Below are positions 49,808-53,530 of a stretch of 64,000 nt of DNA, piece by piece. Each line of letters opens with the position of its first letter. Position 1 is the stretch's first letter. The notes under the pieces were generated by a model. It was not told the origin of the DNA. It saw only the letters and a program-made list of their open reading frames with translations, and searched no databases. The stretch covers positions 1 to 64,000 of the forward strand of contig JAJDTB010000068.1 in assembly GCA_022827345.1 (NCBI GenBank). The letters run 5' to 3'. The DNA comes from Gemmatimonadota bacterium (GTDB lineage Bacteria; Gemmatimonadota; Gemmatimonadetes; Longimicrobiales; Gaopeijiaceae). The translations under genes were made by a program, and so were the position numbers.

Positions 49808-50721
49808 GCGGAGACACCCCGGTCCCGCCCACGGAGGATGCCGCGCGGCCCGCCCGGTTCGGTGTGGGAAGCATGGTGGCGCCCCTGCGCCGGGTCGCGA
49901 TGCGGCGCCCGGGCTCATCCACCTTCCGCGCCGATCCGGCCCGTTGGCATTACGCGGGACCGCTCGACGCGGCGCGAATGGAGGCCCAGTACGACGCCTT
50001 CGCCCGGTGCGTCGCGGATTCCGGCGCCGACATCGAGTGGATCCCGGGCGGCGACGACGGCCTCGCCGACTCCATCTTCGTCTTCGACCCCTCGTTCATG
50101 ACGCCGGCGGGGGCGATTCTGCTCCGGCCCGGCAAGGCCCTGCGGCGCCCGGAGGTGGCGCTGCACGCAGCGCTGTACGAACGGCTGCGCGTGCCCGTCA
50201 TCGGCGCAATCGAGCCGCCGGGCACGGCTGAGGGCGGCGACCTCATCTGGCTCGACGACCGGACGCTTGCTGCCGGACGCACCTTTCGCACCAACCAGGA
50301 GGGCATCGAGCAACTGCAGGCCATCGTGGCCCCCATGGGTGTAGAGGTCCATACCTTCGACCTTCCCATGTGGCACGGCGCATCGGCCTGCCTGCACCTG
50401 CTGTCGGTCGTCAGCCCGCTGGACCGGGATCTGGCGCTCGTCTACCCGCGGCTGGTGCCGGTGGCGCTGCATCGGCTGATGCAAGAGCGCGGGGTCCAGT
50501 GCCTGGAGGCGCCCGATACCGAGTTCGAGGCGTCGGGTGGCCTGACCCTGAATGTGCTGGCGCTGGGGCCCCGCAGATGTATTGCCTTGAGCGGATTTCC
50601 GGAAACGGTGAGACTGATGCAGGACGCGGGTTGCGAGGTCACCTGCTTCGACGCGGACGCGCTGTGCATTCCGTGCGAGGGGGGTCCGACGTGCTTGACG
50701 CTGCCGGTTTGGCGGGGGTGA
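49804..50721 (+). CDS. dimethylarginine dimethylaminohydrolase (DDAH)-like amidinohydrolase
   Basis: This 305-aa protein is of the guanidino-group-modifying superfamily, which hydrolyses methylarginines or arginine at a catalytic Cys. The C-terminal nucleophile is Cys in CEGGPTCLTLPVW, and the His partner lies in GASACLHLLSVVSP. The conserved GTAEGGDLIWL supplies the carboxylate. The N-terminus GSMVAPLRRVAMRRPG matches the family start. It overlaps the APC permease, so uptake and breakdown of a guanidino compound are likely linked. The exact substrate is not provable here. Confidence 0.88.
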   Translation: MSGDTPVPPTEDAARPARFGVGSMVAPLRRVAMRRPGSSTFRADPARWHYAGPLDAARMEAQYDAFARCVADSGADIEWIPGGDDGLADSIFVFDPSFMTPAGAILLRPGKALRRPEVALHAALYERLRVPVIGAIEPPGTAEGGDLIWLDDRTLAAGRTFRTNQEGIEQLQAIVAPMGVEVHTFDLPMWHGASACLHLLSVVSPLDRDLALVYPRLVPVALHRLMQERGVQCLEAPDTEFEASGGLTLNVLALGPRRCIALSGFPETVRLMQDAGCEVTCFDADALCIPCEGGPTCLTLPVWRG

Positions 50722-50730
50722 GGGAGCGCC

Positions 50731-51102
50731 TCAGGCAGCTATCCGCCGCGCCCCCCAGTAGTGCAGCCCGATCCACGCGATCGACGCTACGCCCAGGATG
50801 GAGAACCCCATGATCGATGGGGTCAGCGCGAGCCGGATCATGCTCCACACGAGCGCGGTGCTCACTTCGCCCGCGCTGGTGATGGCGCCGGCACTCACCC
50901 ATACCCCGATGAGGGTGCCGAGGAGCCCGATACACGCGCCCATCACCCCCACCACGAGGACTGCTCCGATCCGTGAGCCGACGGCAGGGTCCGGGACCCC
51001 GCGAACCCGTCCCCGCACCACCCAGCCGACCTGGAGGAGCACGATCATCAGAATCACCAACAGCGGGATTCCCACGATACCGGTTGACTGAAAAAACGAC
51101 AT
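50731..51102 (-). CDS. MotA/TolQ/ExbB-like small membrane protein
   Basis: This 123-aa protein has three helices: VGIPLLVILMIVLLQVGWVV, AVLVVGVMGACIGLLGTLIGVW (read in parts) and GFSILGVASIAWIGLHYW. The central GLLGTLIGVWVSAGAI and MIRLALTPSIMG resemble the conserved core of MotA/TolQ/ExbB proton-channel proteins, but the large cytoplasmic loop is missing and no partner (TolR/ExbD/MotB) is nearby. ATG 51102 is five bases after GGAGG; the ATG just upstream overlaps the previous stop. It is third in a PadR mini-operon. Confidence 0.68.
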   Translation of the reverse strand: MSFFQSTGIVGIPLLVILMIVLLQVGWVVRGRVRGVPDPAVGSRIGAVLVVGVMGACIGLLGTLIGVWVSAGAITSAGEVSTALVWSMIRLALTPSIMGFSILGVASIAWIGLHYWGARRIAA

Positions 51103-51854
51103 CATTGCCTCCTTGCCTCGGCCCGCTTGCCTGCGAACCGGAATGGAAGTGTGACGAGCGCCGAAATCCGACGCTCGCATGCCTCGTCGGTGACAAGGCG
51201 GGGAAGAAGGGCCAGCCAGCCGAGCAGACCGAACGCGGCGGCTCCGACCCCGAGAACTCCGAAGAAGACCACCCGCTGGACGGCTGCCCAGACTTCGCCG
51301 GAGGACGTTTCAACCGCACCGAGCGCGATGTACCCCTGCCAGGCCGCCCCGAGCCCACCCAGCGACACTGCCGCGAGGATCAGGCCGACCTGACGTTCCC
51401 ACAGAGTCCGTCGCTTCTCCACGGGCAGGTCCCCATCGATCCACAACCCCTTCGCCGCCCGCGCCCAGTTGGAGGAGAGGAGGGCGACCACCCCGGCCAG
51501 GGACCATCCCAGCAAACCCCCGGCCGCCCCCGGATCCTGCCGCCAGAGCACAGCCAGCATTGCCGCCCCGGCCAAAACGGCCGTCACGGCGGCTCCCATC
51601 CGCTCGATTCCGGTCGCCACACCGGTTCTTCGGGTCCACCGCCCCAGCCGCGGTGCGTGCCGTGCCTCCAGCTCGGCCAGCACTTCACCCGACGGCACCA
51701 CCCGGCCCGCCGCAATCCGTCGCGCGGTCCTCGCATCGTATCCGCGCCGCTCCAGCTCCTCCTGCAGGGCCTCGGCGTCCGCGCCCAACTCCTCGATCAG
51801 CTCCAGCCGGCGCCGGGGAGGCGCCTTCAGCTTCCGCGCGAGCGCCTCCAGCAT
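51102..51854 (-). CDS. PadR-operon membrane protein of unknown function
   Basis: This 250-aa protein has an N-terminal helical cytoplasmic part (RRRLELIEELGADAEALQEE, then LERRGYDARTARRIA) followed by four to five membrane helices. The N-terminal part resembles the short helical region attached to many PadR-linked membrane proteins in Acidobacteria and Gemmatimonadota. No enzyme motif is present. Its start is 5 bp after the PadR stop codon, and its stop overlaps the start of the MotA/TolQ-like gene, so all three form one operon. Confidence 0.75.
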   Translation of the reverse strand: MLEALARKLKAPPRRRLELIEELGADAEALQEELERRGYDARTARRIAAGRVVPSGEVLAELEARHAPRLGRWTRRTGVATGIERMGAAVTAVLAGAAMLAVLWRQDPGAAGGLLGWSLAGVVALLSSNWARAAKGLWIDGDLPVEKRRTLWERQVGLILAAVSLGGLGAAWQGYIALGAVETSSGEVWAAVQRVVFFGVLGVGAAAFGLLGWLALLPRLVTDEACERRISALVTLPFRFAGKRAEARRQ

Positions 51855-51858
51855 GTTC

Positions 51859-52185
51859 TCACGCCACACGGTTCGGTCCCACCAGCTCGAGGAGCACCCT
51901 GAACTGCTCCTCCAGCTCCGCCGCCCCCGCCTGCAGGGTGGCTCGCCCCGCGGCGGTGATGTGGTAGGTCTTGCGGCGGCGTCCTTCGCCGTGCCACTCG
52001 CCCCGCAGCTTGGCCTCCGCCTCGAGGCGGTGGAGGATGGGGTACAGCGTGCCGTGCTGAAAAACGAAAAGCCCGCCGGACCGCTCCTCGACCGACAGGG
52101 CGATCTGGTAGCCGTGCGCGGGGGCGGCCTCGAGAACCGCCAGCACGAGGAGCTCGTTGATTCTCCTGGAAAGCGTGATCTGCAC
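51859..52185 (-). CDS. PadR-family transcriptional regulator
   Basis: This 108-aa short PadR protein consists almost entirely of the winged helix. INELLVLAVLEAAPAHGYQI leads into HGTLYPILHRLEAEAKLRGEW and RRRKTYHITAAGRATL, then a short dimerisation helix. The GTG start has GGAGG eight bases upstream. A 25-bp near-perfect palindrome 51-75 bp upstream looks like its own operator. It heads the operon of two membrane proteins, which it probably represses. Confidence 0.94.
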   Translation of the reverse strand: MQITLSRRINELLVLAVLEAAPAHGYQIALSVEERSGGLFVFQHGTLYPILHRLEAEAKLRGEWHGEGRRRKTYHITAAGRATLQAGAAELEEQFRVLLELVGPNRVA

Positions 52186-52235
52186 GGCGGGTTCCTCCAG
52201 GCCAGGGTGTCGGCCACGCGAATCGAACGGAATCA

Positions 52236-52321: not shown

Positions 52322-53530
52322 CTACCGGGAGGCGATCTGGCTCGGCACCCCCGCGACGGGCTGCGCAACTGGCGAAGCGATGCCTGCGACCGGCGCGGCC
52401 CGGCGCGGCCAGCGACCGCGGCCATCCTGGCCCTCAACGATCTTCAGGAGCCGCGGAAACCGCATCACTGCAGGCCGTCGTCCCCGAGGCGGCGCGATCT
52501 CCTCGACCGTACCCGACTCCTCCAGACCCGCGAGCAGCCTGCGTCCTGACCGCGCGGGGAGGCCGGTTGCGACGATGAAGCCGCTTGCGGGAAAGATCGG
52601 CCTCGAGAAGAGTGCTCCCAGAGCCGCGCGGAGACCGCGGTCGCCCGTGAGTTCTCGCACCCGCAATTCGGTGCTTCGGTAGAGGCCCAGGATTGCCGTC
52701 AGAACCTGGACCCCGTGATCCGCCTGCGCGCGTACGGCGTCGAGGAAGTACAGACAGAACCCGGTCCAGTCATCGTCACGGGATACACCGAGCAGGCGAT
52801 CGAAGTAGATGCCCTGCCTCGACGCCATCATGACACTGAGGCAAAAGACCGGCATCCGAATGAGACCGTGTCGCCACATCAGATGCGGAATCAGCATTCG
52901 GCCCAGCGGGCCGTTGCCGTCCATGAACGGATGCACCGCCTCGAACTCGGCATGCTGAACCGCGATCTGCACAAGGCGATCCCGGGCGTCCGAGTGTATG
53001 TAGCGTTCCCAGGCACTCATCGCGTCGGCGATTCGGGGCACCTGGGCGCCAACGAAACTGGCCGTTTCCGTAGTCGACCCGGTCCGCCCGATCCAGACGG
53101 GCTCCCTCCGGAATTCGCCCGGTGACTTCTTCTGTCCACGGGGTGCGTCGAGCAACACGGCATGGGCCTCGCGAACAAGCCCGAGAGACAACGGCTTCGA
53201 CCCGGGTCGCCCGGCCAGGAGGTTCTGGGCGGCAAGATGGTTCTGAACATCGCGGATGTCGTCGCGCGTGTAGCGGTTTTCGGGCTCGATGCCCGCTTCC
53301 GTTTCCAGCACGGACGTCACGCCGGCGTAGATGTTCTCTATCCGCGACGAGTGCGAGGCCTCGTGGATGCGCGGCACTGCGAGGAGCGACCGAGGATCGG
53401 GAAGGGCCCCCAGGACCGCGTCGTATCGCGCAACCGCCGCCGCGGCCGGGCCGATCAGCGGAGCCAGGCGCCGCCAGTCCAGCCGTGCATCCGGTGGAAA
53501 GCGGCCTTCGTGGTAGTGGACGGGTGGCAT
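52322..53530 (-). CDS. Fic domain protein with altered core motif
   Basis: This 402-aa protein is of the Fic/DUF4172 type, which usually transfers AMP from ATP to target proteins. An inhibitory-helix motif, SSRIEN at residues 61-66, matches the class II (S/T)xxxE(G/N) pattern. The active-site loop reads HPFMDGNGPLGRM (His200 onward). The expected first Arg of HxFx(D/E)GNGRxxR is Pro208, a CCG codon at 52907-52909; the second Arg is kept. A C-terminal winged-helix-like part (GLPARSGRRLLAGLEESGTV) follows. The start MPPVHYHEG was chosen; an upstream in-frame ATG at 53620 would place an AT-rich promoter-like stretch inside the gene. Confidence 0.9.
   Translation of the reverse strand: MPPVHYHEGRFPPDARLDWRRLAPLIGPAAAAVARYDAVLGALPDPRSLLAVPRIHEASHSSRIENIYAGVTSVLETEAGIEPENRYTRDDIRDVQNHLAAQNLLAGRPGSKPLSLGLVREAHAVLLDAPRGQKKSPGEFRREPVWIGRTGSTTETASFVGAQVPRIADAMSAWERYIHSDARDRLVQIAVQHAEFEAVHPFMDGNGPLGRMLIPHLMWRHGLIRMPVFCLSVMMASRQGIYFDRLLGVSRDDDWTGFCLYFLDAVRAQADHGVQVLTAILGLYRSTELRVRELTGDRGLRAALGALFSRPIFPASGFIVATGLPARSGRRLLAGLEESGTVEEIAPPRGRRPAVMRFPRLLKIVEGQDGRGRWPRRAAPVAGIASPVAQPVAGVPSQIASR

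What the first reader, a model, noticed from the sequence alone, without database searches (positions are those of the whole stretch)
52322..53530. Fic protein with Pro in place of the first conserved core Arg
The motif reads HPFMDGNGPLGR. The first Arg of GNGRxxR, which contacts nucleotide phosphate, is Pro (CCG, one base change from CGG). The class II inhibitory motif and the rest of the protein look intact. Either AMP transfer is lost, the reaction is altered, or the site is a sequencing error.
Basis: seen in the sequence. Interest (0 to 1): 0.58.

Follow-up and report, generated by a model that had tools for sequence, protein, structure and literature searches.

The report
Fic enzyme lacking a core arginine
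A bacterial Fic protein, of a family that usually attaches AMP to other proteins, has a proline where nearly all relatives have a phosphate-gripping arginine; a sister species has the same proline, so it is a real inherited change that probably cripples the usual chemistry.

Summary
The minus-strand gene 52322-53530 encodes a 402-residue class II Fic protein with HPFMDGNGPLGR; Pro208 (CCG, 52907-52909) replaces the first motif Arg (R1). It is neither a sequencing error nor a private mutation: a syntenic, 90% identical ortholog in a second species of the genus also has Pro, with another codon (CCC). Between the two, dN/dS is 0.27, and residues 183-251 around the motif show no amino-acid change but nine synonymous ones. 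In the genus 136 of 138 HPFxDGNGxxxR sites carry Arg; the exceptions are this pair. Positional orthologs in three congeners keep Arg, so Arg-to-Pro happened on the pair's stem, together with loss of three other residues invariant in 34 relatives (E94D, R239Q, W258F/L). By homology R1 grips the ATP beta-phosphate and its backbone NH belongs to the anion nest; Pro removes both. Human FICD R371S, at the same position, loses deAMPylation and keeps weak AMPylation. Most likely this is a retained Fic with crippled, possibly write-only, AMPylation; a binding-only pseudoenzyme is nearly as likely. No activity was measured. A rare variant of a known kind, moderately interesting.

The parts
52322..53530 (-). 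Fic gene, 402 aa, class II (Fic_N + Fic domains)
   Evidence: start supported by relatives
53225..53458 (-). Fic_N domain, residues 25-102
   Evidence: Pfam PF13784, 51.1 bits
53333..53350 (-). inhibitory motif S61-S-R-I-E65-N66, kept
   Evidence: sequence, alignment of relatives
52886..53194 (-). Fic domain, residues 113-215
   Evidence: Pfam PF02661, 50.3 bits
52898..52933 (-). Fic core motif HPFMDGNGPLGR, residues 200-211
52907..52909 (-). Pro208 codon CCG in place of the first motif Arg (R1); CCC in the congener
52778..52984 (-). residues 183-251: no amino-acid change and 9 synonymous codon changes against the congener
53249..53251 (-). residue 94, Asp where the 34 relatives compared have Glu
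52814..52816 (-). residue 239, Gln where the 34 relatives compared have Arg (Lys in SoFic)
52757..52759 (-). residue 258, Phe here and Leu in the congener, where the 34 relatives compared have Trp
52433..52633 (-). C-terminal region, residues about 300-366, winged-helix-like (inference from the order of elements in the model)
   Evidence: AlphaFold2 model

Best explanation
A SoFic-like class II Fic protein in which the first Arg of the core motif was replaced by Pro on the stem of two sister Gemmatimonadota species, and has been kept since. Shown here: the substitution is real, shared, inherited at a conserved locus, and sits in an active-site stretch under purifying selection. Inferred by homology: Pro removes the side chain that salt-bridges the ATP beta-phosphate and also one backbone NH of the anion nest that holds the phosphates (and, in FICD, the water that removes AMP). 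Adenylylation should therefore be strongly reduced and AMP removal abolished. With the catalytic His, metal-binding Asp, Asn, R2 and inhibitory Glu all kept, the protein most likely survives as a slow, write-only AMPylase.
For: Shared Pro with a different codon in a 90% identical ortholog at a syntenic locus. dN 0.047, dS 0.175, dN/dS 0.27; amino-acid-changing codons fewer than neutral, 40 of 85, p = 3.5e-6. No amino-acid change in residues 183-251 (a gap that long has p = 0.014 under random placement) with 9 synonymous changes there. Arg orthologs near the same arginine-deiminase-family gene in G017, G021, G006; tree support 100/100 for the Pro pair and for the five-member clade. R1 binds the beta-phosphate: PMC3667792, passages. 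FICD R371S, same position: AMPylation partly lost, deAMPylation undetectable: PMC9994480, abstract, passages and section 7 part 1. FICD's catalytic water may bond to backbone NH groups of the nest and to Arg371: PMC8373988, passages.
Against: No activity, target or nucleotide binding is known for this protein or was found for a close relative; the mechanism is carried over from distant homologs. FICD R371S keeps its backbone NH, so it is an imperfect model for Pro. The loss of three further invariant residues is more than simple attenuation needs and fits a pseudoenzyme or a changed reaction as well. dN/dS is higher than in 5 of 5 neighbours measured (0.133-0.257) and than in two intact Fic paralogs (0.189, 0.188). 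The 183-251 stretch was picked after seeing the data; with residues 1-367 only, p = 0.030, and an intact paralog has only 2 changes in the matching stretch, so this region is slow in ordinary Fic proteins too.
Confidence: 0.48

Rival explanations
1. Pseudoenzyme: catalysis is gone and the protein is kept for binding, as a target-binding or DNA-binding regulator (through its C-terminal winged-helix-like part) or as a partner of another Fic protein.
For: R1 plus three other family-invariant residues lost together, more strict losses than in any of the other 34 sequences compared. In Bartonella, BepC has a non-canonical motif, no enzymatic activity found, and acts by relocating GEF-H1 (PMC8401265, passages). 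The predicted FIC loop is less certain than in an Arg relative modelled from the same seven sequences (pLDDT under 50 at 203-205; helix alpha-5 starts two residues later).
Against: Catalytic His, metal Asp, Asn, both Gly, R2 and inhibitory Glu are all kept and unchanged between the species, although the divergence is short. The C-terminal part evolves fastest (residues 269-402, dN 0.072). The model comparison is weak evidence.
Confidence: 0.3
2. Gene under relaxation: the enzyme lost its role in this lineage and is slowly decaying without yet being broken.
For: Longest branch in the five-member clade (clade base to tip about 0.49-0.51 against 0.27, 0.35 and 0.42 for the Arg members, from the lengths), loss of invariant residues, dN/dS higher than 5 of 5 neighbours measured and than two intact paralogs.
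Against: dN/dS far under 1 (p = 3.5e-6) and close to the amino-acid permease nearby (0.257); relative-rate tests not significant in 9 of 9 comparisons (lowest p 0.06); frame open in both species; motif residues unchanged with synonymous changes among them.
Confidence: 0.13
3. Changed reaction: the pocket now takes another donor (a different nucleotide or a diphosphate-linked metabolite) whose leaving group needs no R1.
For: R1, R239 (Lys in SoFic) and W258 lost together while the catalytic His and metal-binding Asp stay; some Fic proteins with non-canonical motifs phosphorylate or phosphocholinate (PMC8401265 passage).
Against: No direct evidence of any other donor; where R239 and W258 sit relative to the nucleotide could not be measured because no coordinates were available; the motif groups listed by PMC4454073 all keep Arg at R1 (passages).
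Confidence: 0.08

Closest known systems
SoFic (SO_4266, Shewanella oneidensis; PDB 3EQX, 3ZCN, 3ZEC), class II Fic AMP transferase
   Same: Best Foldseek match (TM 0.71/0.78); N-terminal inhibitory Glu; catalytic His, Asp, Asn, R2 (alignment)
   Different: SoFic has Arg206 at R1 where this has Pro208; Lys where this has Gln239; Trp where this has Phe258 (alignment). The NCBIfam SoFic equivalog model scores 110.2 bits, far under its cut-off of 550
Human FICD R371S (disease variant)
   Same: Same motif position changed with the rest of the motif intact; the variant protein still folds and dimerises (PMC9994480 section 7)
   Different: Ser keeps the backbone NH, Pro does not; FICD is a distant eukaryotic ER enzyme (Foldseek E 4.5e-5 or weaker for FICD entries)
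Degenerate Fic proteins: Bartonella BepC and Bep8, Campylobacter fetus Fic2
   Same: Natural Fic proteins that depart from HxFx(D/E)GNGRxxR
   Different: Fic2 changes G2 and R2 (PMC5651007 passages); Bep8-type proteins are reduced to PFxxGNE (PMC8401265 passages and section 3.3). Here R1 is the only motif residue changed
Arg orthologs in the same genus (L018, L019, L020)
   Same: 56-61% identical, near the same arginine-deiminase-family gene, same SSRIENI stretch and Val145
   Different: Arg at R1; keep E94, R239 and W258

Membership tests
Fic (Fido) fold, Fic_N/Fic subfamily | Pfam Fic_N and Fic domains over their cut-offs | tested here: met
   51.1 and 50.3 bits; fold match to SoFic
Class II Fic protein | N-terminal inhibitory motif (S/T)xxxE(G/N) | tested here: met
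   S61-S-R-I-E65-N66; motif definition from PMC5651007 passages
Canonical Fic AMP transferase | HxFx(D/E)GNGRxxR signature | tested here: not met
   HPFMDGNGPLGR: Pro at R1 in both species
Canonical Fic AMP transferase | AMP transfer from ATP to a protein hydroxyl | not testable with these tools
   needs an assay
SoFic equivalog (NCBIfam NF046030) | score over the curated cut-off of 550 bits | tested here: not met
   110.2 bits
Pseudogene | broken frame or neutral substitution | tested here: not met
   open in both species; dN/dS 0.27, p = 3.5e-6 against neutrality

The most novel reading that the evidence does not exclude
The loss of R1 together with E94, R239 and W258 marks a switch to another donor or another reaction at an otherwise complete Fic active site: a natural Fic enzyme that works without the beta-phosphate arginine.
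Probability: 0.08. Interest if true: 0.65.

Novelty: new variant of a known kind. Interest (0 to 1): 0.36.

Why it matters
R1 is kept in each of the large Fic/Doc motif groups listed in PMC4454073 (passages), and in human FICD its loss causes disease by leaving an enzyme that writes but cannot erase (PMC9994480, abstract and passages). A natural protein with R1 as its only motif change, kept across two species and with Arg-bearing orthologs at the same locus in congeners, is a ready-made before/after pair for asking what R1 does in writing and erasing AMP. It is not a new kind of system.

Tried and rejected
Sequencing error: rejected (same Pro, another codon, in a congener). Private mutation: rejected (same). 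Pseudogene: rejected. Recent duplication with an intact copy retained: not supported, since the next best match listed in G000 is only 35% identical (C32) and in G009 36% (C50). Horizontal origin of the Pro form: not supported, since flanks are syntenic with G009 and the Arg orthologs of G017, G021 and G006 sit near the same arginine-deiminase-family gene. Rate acceleration: 9 of 9 relative-rate comparisons not significant.

Pro elsewhere: the viral contigs pattern found 0. Other non-Arg residues at R1 in 96 genomes of the family: none for codons starting with G or T, and for codons starting with A or C with second base A, C or T only the window gene itself. Ser codons AGY were not tested, and G009 was not among those 96 genomes. 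The scan of public genomes returned 7 loci; L009 is the same DNA as L017 (G009), so they count once. Other phyla could not be surveyed. Position of residues 94, 239 and 258 in space: not measured, no coordinates available. Literature: a text search for Fic + GNGP + AMPylation found 0 papers in the held open-licence library only; searches for first-arginine, degenerate, arginine-mutant and pseudoenzyme Fic papers gave listings or nothing. The SoFic structure paper is not held.

The synteny run translated several neighbours out of frame; it was repeated with open frames and only the latter is used for the neighbours. L033 (N-terminally incomplete) was dropped from the invariance count and the tree. 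Two of four paralog pairings were not orthologs (32-41% identity) and are not used.

Full report
What is there. The gene lies on the minus strand, 52322-53530, 402 residues. Pfam gives Fic_N over residues 25-102 and Fic over 113-215, both over cut-off. The start is supported by relatives: L009-L012 and L014 begin MPPVHYHEGRFPP, L013 differently. The core motif is HPFMDGNGPLGR, with Pro208 encoded by CCG at 52907-52909. The N-terminal inhibitory motif SSRIEN is present, so this is class II. AlphaFold2 from seven sequences gives mean pLDDT 78.6 and pTM 0.80; Foldseek puts SoFic first (3eqx, E 1.4e-15, TM 0.71/0.78).

Is the Pro real? Yes. The window lies in G000, a genome of 4.79 Mb in 75 contigs. 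In G009, a second species of the same genus, the ortholog is 90% identical, shares Pro, and uses CCC instead of CCG. Locus L009, the public record JAJDUP010000003.1 (titled a Gemmatimonadetes MAG), carries the identical gene and flanks and its contig has the same length as the G009 contig, so it is one genome, not a third witness. Nine neighbouring genes tested in open frame all match in order in G009, eight of them at 84-97% identity and the ExbB-like one at 57% over 77 residues.

How rare is it? In all 23 genomes of the genus there are 138 HPFxDGNGxxxR sites; 136 have Arg and 2 have Pro, these two genes (counted). The Pro form of the pattern is found in 2 of 395 genomes of the phylum, the same two, and in 0 viral contigs. 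In 96 genomes of the family no other residue was found at this place for the codons tested, which leave out AGY Ser. Among the 45 loci first fetched, the only Pro ones are the window gene, G009 and its duplicate record. G000 itself carries 13 Fic matches; its other 8 sites of this pattern have Arg.

When did it arise? A maximum-likelihood tree of 36 proteins groups the Pro pair (100/100) with three Arg proteins from congeners G017, G021 and G006 in a clade supported 100/100. In all five members the Fic gene lies within a few kilobases of the same arginine-deiminase-family gene; in the five other Fic loci examined no such match was found, one of them being cut by a contig end. These are therefore positional orthologs, and Arg-to-Pro most simply happened on the stem of the pair. 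No close intact paralog is listed in either genome.

Is it under selection? Between G000 and G009 the gene has dN 0.047, dS 0.175, ratio 0.27; the Fic core (113-268) has 0.035/0.211. Forty of 85 changed codons change the amino acid, against an expected share of 0.71 (p = 3.5e-6). Five neighbours give 0.133-0.257 and two intact Fic paralogs 0.189 and 0.188, so constraint is real but slightly looser here. Two further pairings were not orthologs (32-41% identity) and are not used. Residues 183-251 have no amino-acid change and nine synonymous ones, one of them in the Pro codon. The stretch was chosen after the fact: a gap that long has p = 0.014 over the whole protein and 0.030 over residues 1-367; an intact paralog has 2 changes in the matching stretch.

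What else changed? Of 36 aligned proteins (L033 dropped), the Pro pair has lost four residues invariant in the other 34: E94D, R208P, R239Q, W258F or L; the next most in any other sequence is two. At a 95% threshold L013 equals the pair with five, so the excess is clear only for strict invariants. SoFic has Lys and Trp at 239 and 258 (alignment), so those two reach beyond the subfamily, while E94 does not. In the model residue 239 begins a helix after alpha-5; helix alpha-6 helps form the base pocket in the solved structures (PMC3667792 passage). That residue 239 touches nucleotide is inference only.

How it most likely works. In SoFic, VbhT and NmFic with ATP or analogue in the competent pose, R1 makes a salt bridge to the beta-phosphate, R2 to the gamma-phosphate, and backbone amides at the start of helix alpha-5 hold the alpha and beta phosphates (PMC3667792 passages). 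In FICD the water that removes AMP is held by Glu234 and possibly by backbone NH groups of G368-N-G370 and Arg371 (PMC8373988 passages), and R371S loses all detectable deAMPylation but keeps some AMPylation (PMC9994480; section 7 part 1). Pro at this place has neither the side chain nor an NH. I therefore expect weak or no AMP transfer and no AMP removal. In the model of the Pro protein the FIC loop is uncertain (pLDDT under 50 at 203-205) and helix alpha-5 starts at 208; in an Arg relative (L010) modelled from the same seven sequences there is no such dip and the helix starts at its residue 205, which is residue 206 here. This is weak support because the two proteins differ at half their residues.

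Rivals. A binding-only pseudoenzyme is nearly as likely; kept His, Asp, Asn, R2 and Glu speak mildly against it, but the divergence is short. Decay under relaxation is less likely given dN/dS and the non-significant relative-rate tests. A changed donor or reaction is not excluded and is the most novel reading.

Known or new? It is a member of the Fic fold family and of class II by the features tested, but not a canonical Fic AMP transferase because the signature is not met. Other natural degenerate Fic proteins are known (Fic2 of Campylobacter fetus; Bep8 and BepC); in the passages I read none is described with R1 as its only motif change. A search for Fic + GNGP + AMPylation in the held library gave no paper; this does not cover subscription journals. 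Verdict: new variant of a known kind, interest 0.36.

Noticed in passing
whole genome G000: Thirteen Fic-domain matches in one 4.8 Mb genome, and 138 HPFxDGNGxxxR sites over 23 genomes of the genus: the genus is rich in Fic proteins.
   Followed up: partly
49837-50718 (+): Arginine-deiminase-family (PF02274) gene near this Fic gene in all five species of the clade and not found at five other Fic loci examined; whether the link is functional is unknown.
   Followed up: partly
51862-52191 (-): PadR-family regulator directly downstream of the Fic gene on the same strand, 97% identical in G009, no match at the three Arg loci examined.
   Followed up: no
L018-L020 and the window gene, residues 66-67 and 145: The whole five-member clade has SSRIENI where most relatives have SSRIEGT, and Val for Asn145 in the stretch that aligns with the flap, so the clade had already diverged before Pro arose.
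   Followed up: no
L035: Another Fic relative (G040) has HPFLDENGRIGR, with Glu for the first motif Gly.
   Followed up: no
50734-51180 (-): Small MotA/TolQ/ExbB-like protein, just under the Pfam cut-off (21.1 against 22.9 bits); only 57% identical over 77 residues in G009 while its neighbours are 84-97%.
   Followed up: no
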